DNA from: Desulforegula conservatrix Mb1Pa
GTDB taxonomy: Bacteria > Desulfobacterota > Desulfobacteria > Desulfobacterales > Desulforegulaceae
Assembly: GCF_000426225.1 (NCBI RefSeq)
Contig: NZ_AUEY01000045.1
Coordinates: 1 to 33,121 of the forward strand
Reading direction: 5' to 3'
DNA: 33,121 nt
Each line of letters opens with the position of its first letter. Position 1 is the first letter of the stretch. The notes under the pieces were generated by a model. The model saw only the letters and a list, made by a program, of their open reading frames with translations. It searched no databases and was not told the DNA's origin. Positions 25,489 through 28,168 of the stretch are shown here, one piece after another. Position numbers and translations under genes: made by a program.

Positions 25489-25548
25489 GATTCCCTTCCT
25501 TTTATAGGCAGATTTTTTCTGACGGAAATGCTACTCTGTATTTATATT

Positions 25549-25679
25549 TGATGAACCCGCAAGAAGCCTGATTTCTGTCATTCCGGCGCAGGCAGGAATC
25601 CAGAAGTGGGTGAAATAACTGAACCGGATCAAGCCCGGCATGACGCCGCCGCTGTTTTTGACTTTTTACGAAGCCATCA
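25549..25679 (+). repeat. Palindromic MITE-like element, copy F (inside the pilin operon)
   Basis: The copy runs from TGATGAACCCGCAAGAAGCC to TTTTTACGAAGCCATCA. The inner arms are GTCATTCCGGCGCAGGC and CCGGCATGACG. It fills most of the pilW-pilX gap. Read on the minus strand, its first three bases TGA are exactly the pilW stop codon. Confidence 0.85.
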
Positions 25680-26270
25680 TATTTCCCCCAGATTCCTGCA
25701 TTTGACTACGGTACGGTATTCTCTTTTTTCACTCCCTGATCCGCCCCAGTATTTTTCATTTGCTGATACGTATATATCAACAGCTCTTATTTTTTCAGGG
25801 TTCCGGACGGATTCGGCGTCAGGATTAAGAGAGTCTCCATTTTTGTCCAGAAAAGTAAATCTGAGGGTTTCAATATTTGAAAGCATTGGCTGGGATACTC
25901 CGTTATTCTGAAACTGAAGGGACTTTGTAGAGCTTGAAACATAATATCTGAAGCGTTCATCTGCCTCGAAGTATCCATTGACATTTATATCCGAGTTGAA
26001 CTCTATTTCATCTTCTTTAGCCTTTATTATCTTGAAATCCCCCTTTTTAAAGGGATCCAGACTGGCCTGCCTTATGTCAAATGCAATTACATTTACTGCT
26101 GATCTTAATCCCTGCTGTAGAGAGACCCTGACATTTTCACCGCTCATGCTCCGGCTCATGGAAGAGAACACAGTAACAACTACAACCATGATTATCCCGC
26201 TTATGGCCAGAGTCACAAGAACTTCGATCAGAGTAAAGCCATCATGACCTGTTAGTTTTTTTATAATCAT
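25677..26270 (-). CDS. pilW: Minor pilin PilW-like
   Basis: This 197-residue prepilin has an 11-residue leader MIIKKLTGHDG, then FTLIEVLVTLAISGIIMVVVV with Glu at mature position 5, as required by the prepilin peptidase and assembly system. The downstream part (LRSAVNVIAFDIRQASLDP) matches the PilW pattern. The start at 26270 is chosen because its ATG overlaps the pilV stop (ATGA) and gives a normal leader. A longer frame to 26336 adds 22 residues without support. The stop codon is the terminal TGA of repeat copy F, so the original C-terminus may have been altered by that insertion. Confidence 0.87.
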   Translation of the reverse strand: MIIKKLTGHDGFTLIEVLVTLAISGIIMVVVVTVFSSMSRSMSGENVRVSLQQGLRSAVNVIAFDIRQASLDPFKKGDFKIIKAKEDEIEFNSDINVNGYFEADERFRYYVSSSTKSLQFQNNGVSQPMLSNIETLRFTFLDKNGDSLNPDAESVRNPEKIRAVDIYVSANEKYWGGSGSEKREYRTVVKCRNLGEI

Positions 26271-26839
26271 ATTTCGATATTCCCCCTTGTCAGAACTGAA
26301 TATGTAACACTTTTCGGAGAGCCGTTTCTGGTCCATGAAACAGAGACTTTTATTCTTTTTAGAGAAGAACTGTCAGGATCTGTGGTTACCCAAGTCTGCC
26401 TTCTGAATATCCCGGAAGGGCTTTCATATCCGTCACAATCGACATTTTCCTCTATGATCGGACTTTCCTCGCCAGTTTCCTGCCCAAGAATTGAAGTCGA
26501 GTCATTTAATCTTGCGATGGAAACCTCCTCGATCCTTTTTTGGGTGATCATATTCGCTATTGTTGTGATATTTCCGCCTGTATTGAACTGGGATGACGAA
26601 AGCTGGAGGGAAAGCACCGCGAGAAGACCAATGGACAAGAGTCCCATGGCCATCATGACTTCTATCAGGGAAAAGCCCTTCTGATTTCCCCCATCAATTG
26701 TTTTTGATGAAATCACAGGCAATACTGTTGCCATCATCCCTGTAAAGGCCGGAATCCTCAAATTACTATAAATCCCGGATGCAGGATCAAGTAAGACATG
26801 ACGCATACGCTCATTTTTGATTTTCTGCGACCTTATCAT
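26267..26839 (-). CDS. pilV: Minor pilin PilV-like with repeat-derived leader
   Basis: This 190-residue prepilin has the processing motif QKG-FSLIEVMMAMGLLSIGLLAVLS, giving a mature chain that starts at residue 56 with Glu at position 5. The first ~42 residues are encoded by repeat copy G: the ATG overlaps the TGATAAGGTCGC end of the element. GGAGG lies 8 bases before this ATG, so translation from it is likely. Later in-frame starts (ATG at 26737 or 26734, GTG at 26716) would give ordinary leaders of 21, 20 or 14 residues but have weak sites. The stop overlaps pilW by ATGA. The protein would join FimT, PilW and PilX in the pilus-initiating minor pilin complex. Confidence 0.82.
   Translation of the reverse strand: MIRSQKIKNERMRHVLLDPASGIYSNLRIPAFTGMMATVLPVISSKTIDGGNQKGFSLIEVMMAMGLLSIGLLAVLSLQLSSSQFNTGGNITTIANMITQKRIEEVSIARLNDSTSILGQETGEESPIIEENVDCDGYESPSGIFRRQTWVTTDPDSSSLKRIKVSVSWTRNGSPKSVTYSVLTRGNIEI
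26712..26838 (-). repeat. Palindromic MITE-like element, copy G (within pilV 5' end)
   Basis: On the minus strand it begins TGATAAGGTCGCAGAAAATC and continues with GCGTATGCGTCATGTCTTAC, CTTGATCCTGCATCCGG and GATTCCGGCCTTTACAGGGA. The far end is eroded near 26712. It overlaps the pilV start codon and is read in frame. The left-hand limit is approximate. Confidence 0.7.
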
Positions 26840-26861
26840 TATAAAAACCTCCGAATTATAT

Positions 26862-27326
26862 TCAAATAAACCGGATTCTTCCGGCCCTGCTTACTGCCAT
26901 TGCCTGCTCTCTACCACCAAGTCTTACCAGTATCCTCCCGCCCGCTGTTGTATCAGAAGTAAGCATTCCCCTTGGGCTGAATCTGGCGTATGATCTTGAC
27001 CCGAATCTGGTTTCGGTTGAGTCAATGGATGCTCCTTCAAGTTTTTTTTCAAATACTTCCTCGCCGTCATCCATTTCACCGTTATTGTTAAAATCATGGA
27101 AGGCCCTGTATCCGTCCTGAAAAAAATCAACCCTGACTATAAATTTCCTGCACATTGCCTGGATTCTTGCACGTTCAAGGTCTGCCTTGATATTGAACGC
27201 CGAAGACCTTACTATTGCAGAATTGCGCCATGACACGAAATTTGGCACAGCCACGCATGACATGATTGCGATTATGGAAATCACCACAAGAAGCTCAAAC
27301 AGAGAGAAACCATCATAATTATCCAT
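26862..27326 (-). CDS. fimT: FimT/GspH-type pseudopilin
   Basis: This 154-residue prepilin has a very short leader MDNYDG, then FSLFELLVVISIIAIMSCVAVP with Glu at mature position 5. The region SSAFNIKADLERARIQAMCRK and the C-terminal SPRGMLTSD / MAVSRAGRIRF pattern are those of the GspH/FimT domain. It is the first gene of the minus-strand operon. The site AAGGGGGCATTATTT-ATG is good, with 22 bases to pilV. FimT-type proteins take part in minor pilin function and, in some species, DNA binding during uptake; which applies here is unknown. Confidence 0.87.
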   Translation of the reverse strand: MDNYDGFSLFELLVVISIIAIMSCVAVPNFVSWRNSAIVRSSAFNIKADLERARIQAMCRKFIVRVDFFQDGYRAFHDFNNNGEMDDGEEVFEKKLEGASIDSTETRFGSRSYARFSPRGMLTSDTTAGGRILVRLGGREQAMAVSRAGRIRFI

Positions 27327-27506: not shown

Positions 27507-28044
27507 TTTCAAACAACCCTGCATGTATTTCAGTTACTATCTTGCTTAGGGAAATGCAGTTCTTGAAAAGACTTGGTGAAGAGCTTATATTATTCCGTCA
27601 AAATGGTGGATCAGGGATATCCTGTATTTAGAGTTCGAAAAACCTGATTTCATTTTTCCAGTTATTCTTTATCGGGTGGACGGCCTCTCTAAAAAGAGAG
27701 AAAAATTTATTCTGTTGAGAACGAGGGCCTTCATGGGAGAGCTTATTTTATTGTGGTTATGCTCAATTCTCAGTAACATTTGAAAGTTCATGGGCTTAAC
27801 ATTTTTTAAACTCTAAAAATATCAGTTTTTTGCCTACTAACAAAACCATAAAGTTTTTGCGGAGCTTTTTACAAAAAGCGACCCGCCGGAGGCACTCGGC
27901 TTAACGTCGGATTACGGACAAAGGGCGTCCTAATCCGCCTTACGCCCCCCCCTTGTTTTGATGGCAAATTAACCTACAAGGCACTTTTTAACTGGAAATC
28001 AGACTATGTGCCATCTTCTAATCTAACAATTCTTTCAGCCTTAA
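27507..28044. other. Intergenic region upstream of the pilin operon
   Basis: No gene is supported. It contains a CTCTCT-AAAA-AGAGAG hairpin at 27685-27700 and, near 27848-27950, a GC-richer unit unlike its surroundings that includes a long hairpin (separate entry). Confidence 0.5.
27908..27937. repeat. GC-rich hairpin, second palindromic unit type
   Basis: CGGATTA-c-GGAC pairs with GTCC-TAATCCG around a 7-base loop, with one bulged base. It is preceded by GTTTTTGCGGAGC / ACCCGCCGGAGGC. The style recalls REP-like intergenic units of proteobacteria. Only one copy is in this window. Confidence 0.5.
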
Positions 28045-28092: not shown

Positions 28093-28168
28093 TGGAGCCG
28101 ATGAGCGGAATCGAACCGCTGGCTTGCTGATTACGAATCAGCTACTCTACCGGCTGAGTTACATCGGC
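28093..28168 (-). tRNA. tRNA-Thr (anticodon CGT)
   Basis: This 76-base cloverleaf has acceptor arms GCCGATG and CATCGGC, a D-arm region AACTCAGCCGGTAGAGT, and an anticodon stem GCTGA/TCAGC with loop TTCGTAA, so the anticodon is CGT reading ACG (Thr). The T-arm is GCGGTTCGATTCCGC. The 3' CCA is encoded. A terminator follows. I found no copied 3' end that would mark an integrated element. Confidence 0.95.

What the first reader, a model, noticed from the sequence alone, without database searches (positions are those of the whole stretch)
26712..26839. Repeat element forms the start codon and a 40-residue leader extension of pilV
The pilV ATG overlaps the TGATAAGGTCGC end of copy G, and a strong GGAGG site sits 8 bases upstream. 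The element stays open in the pilV frame. The prepilin leader would therefore be 55 residues instead of the usual 6-25, with the normal cleavage site (G-FSLIEV) kept. This parallels in-frame palindromic elements in Rickettsia proteins. It would be a natural test of how long a prepilin leader can be, or else the gene has shifted to a weaker internal start.
Basis: partly seen in the sequence, partly recalled or inferred. Interest (0 to 1): 0.74.

Follow-up and report, generated by a model that had tools for sequence, protein, structure and literature searches.

The report
Repeat-built leader on a pilus protein
A decayed mobile repeat supplies the start codon and most of the throw-away leader of a pilus protein, and copies of the same repeat sit in frame in the export signals of four other proteins of this bacterium, which suggests that disposable leaders tolerate such insertions.

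Summary
A full-length, strongly diverged copy of a 136-bp palindromic repeat occupies 26704-26838 (62.9 bits, E 3.6e-19, model trained without it). Its edge forms the ATG at 26839, 8 nt after GGAGG, and it stays open into the pilV-like prepilin gene. No ATG, GTG or TTG lies in frame between repeat and cleavage site, so with standard start codons the leader must contain repeat sequence. The upstream ATG has a Shine-Dalgarno energy of -10.7, like fimT (-10.8) and pilW (-10.5) of the operon; internal starts reach at most -5.3. The predicted leader is 55 residues; no translation data exist. The paralogous PilV has 12 or 8. The repeat consensus is a head-to-head dimer of CGTC-tagged REPs, the super-family of Rickettsia RPE-4 and RPE-6. 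The case is not isolated: of 195 copies examined, five are fused in frame to real genes with no start codon between repeat and export signal, and all five encode apparently exported proteins, though my rule favours such genes. Two gspJ-like prepilin genes have other repeated DNA in their leader region. No selection on the leader's amino acids is detectable. New variant of a known kind.

The parts
26704..26838 (-). copy G: full-length, diverged copy of the 136-bp CGTC-REP-dimer repeat, read in its one commonly open ('HAGLDPAS') frame as residues 2-45 of the leader
   Evidence: nhmmer with a model trained without it: 62.9 bits, E 3.6e-19, model 2-135; translation compared with other copies
26837..26839 (-). 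ATG start codon at the repeat/flank junction (flanking A + TG of the repeat's end)
   Evidence: sequence; edge codon is TTG in 105 and ATG in 23 of 161 full-length copies
26848..26852 (-). GGAGG Shine-Dalgarno site, 8 nt before the ATG, outside the repeat
   Evidence: anti-SD duplex energy -10.7
26675..26839 (-). predicted 55-residue prepilin leader; 10 residues (KTIDGGNQKG) outside the repeat
   Evidence: translation; pLDDT under 50 for residues 1-53
26267..26839 (-). pilV-like minor prepilin gene, 190 codons
   Evidence: PF07963 33 bits over its cut-off of 21.2; TIGR02523 PilV 44.5 bits, below its 52.2 cut-off; pilin-like helix plus four strands after the leader, low overall confidence
26862..27326 (-). 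fimT/GspH-like prepilin gene, its stop 22 nt before the pilV ATG, leader 6 residues
26714..26737 (-). weak internal start codons of the rival reading: ATG 26737, ATG 26734, TTG 26722, GTG 26716 (leaders 21, 20, 16, 14)
   Evidence: SD energies -3.1, -4.9, -5.3, -1.8
25547..25680 (.). another copy of the repeat, between pilW and the next gene of the same operon

Best explanation
A CGTC-type REP dimer inserted, long ago, between the Shine-Dalgarno site of a pilV-like gene and its coding region. Many copies end in TTG-ATG or ATG-ATG and some are open in one frame, so the insertion brought its own start codon to the existing ribosome site (start-codon capture). The old start was then free to decay; an ATG>ATT change at codon 48 would fit, giving an ancestral MDGGNQKG leader (inference). 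PilV is now translated from the ATG at 26839 as a precursor with a 55-residue, basic, probably unstructured cytoplasmic leader. PilD should remove it at G55|F56, so mature PilV is unchanged. Shown: the repeat, its frame, the junction ATG, the Shine-Dalgarno site, the absence of a later standard start codon, one prepilin-peptidase domain in the genome. Inferred: translation from 26839, cleavage by PilD, the order of events.
For: Repeat homology. Shine-Dalgarno -10.7, matching the neighbours fimT -10.8 and pilW -10.5, against -1.8 to -5.3 for internal starts and 0.66% of background ATGs. No ATG, GTG or TTG in frame after the repeat. TTG or ATG at the edge followed by ATG in 93 of 161 full-length copies. 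The paralogous operon on C6 has the same gene order and a PilV (49% identity) with a 12 or 8 residue leader and no repeat in it. The genome has one PilD-type peptidase domain. Same architecture in four other genes, clearest in an outer-membrane efflux protein: its own ATG and MKKIIKYLN precede the repeat, and the hydrophobic segment and lipobox follow it. A gspJ-like gene on C14 has no standard start codon closer than 45 codons to its cleavage site, and 297 of the 345 nt before that site are repeated DNA. The mature part is modelled as pilin-like; the leader has low confidence.
Against: No purifying selection is visible in the repeat-derived codons: differences from consensus by codon position 12/16/16, pN/pS 0.78, P 0.36 among random open sequences; a frame open after 44 random substitutions has probability 0.20. 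No true ortholog without the repeat was found; the 57 relatives searched are only of the same order. No expression data. Loss of the RNA hairpin in copy G is ordinary for copies this old: 10 of 19 other low-scoring copies fold as weakly or more weakly.
Confidence: 0.65

Rival explanations
1. The repeat sits in the 5' region, but translation starts inside its 3' part (ATG 26737/26734, TTG 26722 or GTG 26716), giving an ordinary leader of 14-21 residues that is still partly made of repeat sequence.
For: These starts exist and give normal leader lengths. A methionine codon at residues 31-40 of this frame is present in 41 of the 47 copies that are open in it, so the repeat commonly offers such a start. 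PMC3733652 (section 15 read) argues that many REPs at annotated N-termini are extragenic because translation starts downstream.
Against: Shine-Dalgarno energies only -1.8 to -5.3; 18.8% of background ATGs reach -4.9. A strong upstream GGAGG-ATG in the same frame would load ribosomes first. The upstream half has kept its frame and start codon although the copy has diverged to 67% identity, though chance alone would do so in about one case in five.
Confidence: 0.18
2. Two prepilin forms are made, a long one from 26839 and a short one from an internal start, as described for Geobacter sulfurreducens PilA (10 and 29 residue leaders, both cut by PilD).
For: Both classes of start are present. The Geobacter case is reported in PMC6201914 (passages read).
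Against: Internal starts are weak; no expression data.
Confidence: 0.12
3. The insertion has crippled this pilV and the C6 paralogous operon carries the function; the open frame is a leftover.
For: A paralogous fimT-pilV-pilW-pilX-like cluster exists. No selection on the leader residues is detectable.
Against: pilV and its neighbours are intact, the Shine-Dalgarno site and ATG are intact, and the copy is old, so a dead gene should have acquired lesions (inference).
Confidence: 0.05

Closest known systems
CGTC-tagged REP elements, including Rickettsia RPE-4 and RPE-6 (PMC3733652; section 15, part 1 of 4 of section 4, and search passages read)
   Same: Consensus has the CGTC tag, 8-bp stems starting with AT, loops of 4 and 5 nt, CCA tails and head-to-head dimer layout; REPs are reported in frame inside ORFs and often at their N-termini
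   Different: Here the dimer is set in a larger 136-bp palindrome, and the five in-frame copies sit in export leaders with no start codon between repeat and export signal. The sections read describe N-terminal REPs as often extragenic and name DNA synthesis and repair genes as frequent hosts
Rickettsia palindromic elements in protein-coding genes (as cited in PMC10969869 and PMC3733652, passages read; the original papers were not read)
   Same: In-frame palindromic repeat of similar size (about 150 bp) in protein-coding genes
   Different: Here the encoded peptide should be removed with the leader and not kept in the mature protein
Geobacter sulfurreducens PilA long and short leaders (PMC6201914, passages read)
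   Same: Prepilin made with two leader lengths, one longer than the classical 6-7 residues
   Different: 29 against 55 residues; no repeat element is mentioned in the passages read
Long prepilin/archaellin leaders: S. sanguinis PilE1/PilE2, 18 residues (PMC5389465); O. meridianum ArlB, 26 residues, called unusually long (PMC12448462); passages read
   Same: Leaders longer than classical ones
   Different: All far shorter than 55; no repeat origin is mentioned in the passages read

Membership tests
CGTC REP (CGTC-1/CGTC-2 dimer) | Terminal CGTC (or TGTC/CCTC) tag | tested here: met
   Both units of the consensus start with CGTC
CGTC REP (CGTC-1/CGTC-2 dimer) | Stem of 8-9 bp with A-T pairs in the first two positions, loop of 4-5 nt | tested here: met
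   ATTCCGGC/GTTG/GCCGGAAT and ATTCCGGA/CTTGA/TCCGGAAT in the consensus; at least one unit with at most one mismatch in 149 of 195 copies, both in 61
CGTC REP (CGTC-1/CGTC-2 dimer) | CCA tail and predominance of head-to-head dimers | tested here: met
   CCA in both units of the consensus, tags outside
CGTC REP (CGTC-1/CGTC-2 dimer) | The units are recognisable in copy G itself | tested here: not met
   No unit found in copy G; it belongs by whole-length profile homology only
MITE (miniature inverted-repeat transposable element) | Terminal inverted repeats with target-site duplication | tested here: inconclusive
   Inverted ends (TTGA..TCAA type) are clear; no consistent target duplication was seen by eye among 31 copies
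MITE (miniature inverted-repeat transposable element) | Mobilised by a transposase of the same genome | not tested
   24 Y1_Tnp matches exist, most of them partial; no link to this repeat was tested
Type IV prepilin | Class III signal: hydrophilic leader ending in G, then hydrophobic stretch with E5 | tested here: met
   PF07963 33 bits, cut-off 21.2; QKG|FSLIEV
PilV (TIGR02523) | Score over the equivalog cut-off | tested here: not met
   44.5 bits against 52.2; called PilV-like, also from operon order
Type IV prepilin | Leader cut by PilD | not testable with these tools
   One Peptidase_A24 domain in the genome

The most novel reading that the evidence does not exclude
Cleavable export leaders are a recurrent safe harbour for in-frame mobile repeats. 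In this genome a REP dimer that carries start codons at its edge and one commonly open, basic reading frame has become the leader, or part of it, of a prepilin, two lipoproteins, a TonB receptor and an M23 peptidase, and other repeated DNA has entered the leader region of two gspJ-like genes. The repeat acts as a portable leader cassette: it captures an existing ribosome site, the extra residues are cut away, and the mature protein is untouched. Prepilin peptidase and Sec/SRP would then accept n-regions of 45 to over 100 residues.
Probability: 0.42. Interest if true: 0.75.

Novelty: new variant of a known kind. Interest (0 to 1): 0.6.

Why it matters
If translated as predicted, this is a natural insertion series on two questions: how long and how arbitrary a prepilin leader or a signal-peptide n-region can be, and how selfish repeats settle in coding DNA without harming the product. 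It also warns annotators that ORFs running through these repeats upstream of export signals may be real and should not be trimmed by rule.

Tried and rejected
Amino-acid selection on the leader: tested against the 135-nt-class consensus, no codon-position bias; not claimed. Open frame as evidence by itself: rejected, 47 of 161 full-length copies have it. RNA hairpin bringing the Shine-Dalgarno site near an internal start, or hairpin loss as a sign of domestication: rejected, folding of copy G is within the range of other old copies. Initiation at ATT 26698 (codon 48): no Shine-Dalgarno support (-3.5). Target-site duplication: none seen by eye. A relative of the protein in genome contigs: none (53 pattern matches, none confirmed). 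Other in-frame crossings: of 11 ORFs with at least 100 codons outside the repeat, 6 were set aside. L082 and L061 have start codons after the repeat. L040, L041, L075 and L235 have no Pfam match; L041 runs antisense to a permease-like ORF and L040 overlaps a long ORF in another frame.

The prepilin surveys read mostly one strand and missed loci; one search replaces them. A second efflux-protein gene on C51 has a copy upstream but not fused. In the other main frame of the repeat all but about nine of the 150 listed matches contain a stop, usually TGA.

Bias to state: my rule for a 'real fusion' (no start codon between repeat and first recognisable feature) favours exported proteins, because their hydrophobic segment begins near the N-terminus; five of five is therefore suggestive and no test of enrichment. 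No signal-peptide predictor was available; 'exported' and 'lipoprotein' rest on hydrophobic segment, lipobox seen by eye, and Pfam family.

Full report
THE OBSERVATION. The pilV-like gene lies on the minus strand, 26839-26267, 190 codons. It follows a fimT/GspH-like gene by 22 nt and precedes a pilW-like gene, a gene without a Pfam or NCBIfam match (called pilX from its position, recalled) and a pilY1-like gene. A profile of the repeat built with copy G masked finds it at 26704-26838 with 62.9 bits, E 3.6e-19, from model position 2 to 135; the window holds eight copies. The ATG at 26839 is a flanking A plus the repeat's terminal TG. GGAGG at 26852-26848 is outside the repeat, 8 nt away. The 55-residue leader is MIRSQK...VISS from the repeat, then KTIDGGNQKG, then FSLIEV of the mature protein.

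WHICH START. Every in-frame ATG, GTG or TTG before the cleavage site lies in the repeat or at its edge, so with standard start codons the leader always contains repeat sequence. Anti-Shine-Dalgarno energies: 26839 -10.7; 26806 -2.7; a TTG giving a 29-residue leader -4.1; 26737 -3.1; 26734 -4.9; 26722 -5.3; 26716 -1.8; the ATT at 26698 -3.5. fimT has -10.8 and pilW -10.5. Of 5455 ATGs sampled from the fetched own-genome loci (overlaps included), 0.66% reach -10.7 and 18.8% reach -4.9. This favours 26839 strongly, but it is not proof of initiation.

HOW UNUSUAL. Of 19 prepilin-like genes in this genome, the start with the best Shine-Dalgarno energy gives a leader of 4-24 residues in 16, 55 in this pilV, 115 (at least 45 with any standard start) in a gspJ-like gene on C14, and is undefined (no standard start codon) in a gspJ-like gene on C27. 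In relatives of the same order, 80 prepilin-like motifs were found by pattern in 29 loci; the 28 with a Shine-Dalgarno energy of -8 or better have leaders of 6-31. Against my reading: among the other 52, the best but weaker start gives leaders of 53, 55, 55 and 59 in four, and three of the 80 have forced minima of 31, 38 and 44 residues. So 55 is beyond all strongly supported cases seen, but long leaders may not be as rare as the textbook range suggests. Papers seen in passages give 29 residues for the long Geobacter PilA form (PMC6201914), 18 for S. sanguinis PilE1/2 (PMC5389465) and 26, called unusually long, for an archaellin (PMC12448462).

THE REPEAT. The consensus consists of two CGTC-tagged hairpin units in head-to-head order, one with 8-bp stem and 4-nt loop, one with 8-bp stem and 5-nt loop, both with CCA tails. 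These are the defining features of CGTC-1 and CGTC-2 REPs in PMC3733652 (section 15, part 1 of section 4, and search passages read), which equates R. conorii RPE-6 and RPE-4 with CGTC-1 and CGTC-4. Copy G itself has no recognisable unit left. In the own genome 195 distinct near-full-length copies were recovered from 205 fetched loci, overlaps included; the total is probably larger, because the searches scored only 40 of 602 and 150 of 681 first-look candidates. In the pilV orientation one frame, translating as HAGLDPAS...FWIPACAGMT, is open and a multiple of 3 in 47 of 161 full-length copies; in the next frame all but about nine of 150 listed matches contain a stop. The edge codon is TTG in 105 and ATG in 23 of 161, and TTG or ATG is followed by ATG in 93 of 161. 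A fresh copy thus often brings start codons and sometimes an open basic frame. Related repeats, often the REP core only, occur in 15 of 39 other genomes of the order (16 of 40 with the own genome).

SAME ARCHITECTURE ELSEWHERE. Among the 195 copies, 11 ORFs cross a copy in frame with at least 100 codons outside it. Five are real genes with no standard start codon between the repeat's end and the export signal: pilV; an outer-membrane efflux lipoprotein (C27:5568-7136, PF02321; ATG and MKKIIKYLN before the repeat, NLFYIISVCAIFFSGC after it); a TonB-dependent receptor (C53, PF07715 and PF00593; the repeat's edge gives ATG-ATG, and the hydrophobic LIFVFILFASSICISA follows the repeat); an M23 peptidase (C107, PF01551; weak TTG codons lie inside its hydrophobic segment); and an NlpC/P60 lipoprotein (C178, PF00877). 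In the four others than pilV the best start before or at the edge of the repeat has only a moderate Shine-Dalgarno energy (-5.4 to -7.0), and a late ATG inside the repeat remains an alternative in each. The other six ORFs were set aside for the reasons given under Tried and rejected. For comparison, 4 of 11 efflux-protein loci of relatives could be read at the start (the others were lost to a strand error in that script): two have short n-regions (MKIKRNW, MIKK), one a longer one of about 20 residues, one is ambiguous.

OTHER REPEATED DNA IN PREPILIN LEADERS. In the C14 gspJ-like gene, whose TTG overlaps the stop of the gspI-like gene, 297 of the 345 leader nt (L243:1848-2144) match other places of the genome: a 45-nt core with about 40 loci, the rest with a few. 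The nearest standard start codon is 45 codons from the cleavage site. The C27 gspJ-like gene has the same core and no standard start codon; a CTG with energy -9.5 lies 25 codons before the site. Both are called gspJ-like from gene order and weak matches under the curated cut-offs.

MECHANISM. The simplest account is start-codon capture: insertion between Shine-Dalgarno site and old start, initiation at the repeat's edge, decay of the old start, and removal of the extra residues with the leader by PilD, whose peptidase domain is present once. The leader has a net charge of +5 and no confident structure, while the mature part is modelled as a long helix plus four strands (mean pLDDT 58, alignment of two sequences). 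The charge fits an n-region that stays in the cytoplasm, as the review PMC10191384 describes for prepilins (passages read).

LIMITS. Differences of copy G from the 135-nt-class consensus (44 of 135 sites; consensus from 21 of the 27 other copies of that length in the set) fall 12/16/16 on codon positions, pN/pS 0.78, which is what chance gives (P 0.36 among open simulations), and chance leaves the frame open with probability 0.20. No genome of the same family was offered by the search (57 relatives, all same order), so no ortholog without the repeat was seen; the C6 paralog is the nearest comparison (49% identity). My rule for fusions favours exported proteins. Ten full-text searches listed no paper that I recognised as describing REP or MITE copies that form prepilin or signal-peptide leaders; I saw listings, opened only some of the papers, and did not open the single hits (PMC2996958, PMC12350097). 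The library lacks most subscription journals, so this is weak evidence of novelty.

Noticed in passing
L243:1828-2172 (own genome C14:44127-44471): A gspJ-like prepilin gene has a 115-codon open stretch before its cleavage site, 297 of 345 nt of it repeated DNA; the only in-frame standard starts give leaders of 115, 99, 90 or 45 residues. A better length test than pilV.
   Followed up: partly
L244:2044-2205 (own genome C27:36843 onward): Another gspJ-like prepilin gene has no ATG, GTG or TTG between the last stop and its cleavage site; a CTG 25 codons before it follows a GGAGG that belongs to the same other repeat.
   Followed up: partly
window 25547-25680 and L039:1501-1636: Copies of the 136-bp repeat sit between pilW and the next gene in both paralogous pilin operons, either kept since duplication or inserted twice at the same place.
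   Followed up: no
window 27850-27894, also 488-526: A second repeat with a 45-nt hairpin core ending in GGAGG; about 40 fetched own-genome loci match it (overlapping loci counted).
   Followed up: partly
L035 (relative G030): A prepilin-like gene of a relative has a forced minimum leader of 44 residues whose sequence looks internally repetitive. (A note names the genome wrongly.)
   Followed up: no
L112 (Desulfobacterales MAG SMBSF49, JAIOSR010000471.1): The only exact match returned for the repeat's 24-base end in genome contigs; records of the own genome may be left out there.
   Followed up: no
window 28093-28168: tRNA-Thr (anticodon CGT) on the minus strand.
   Followed up: no
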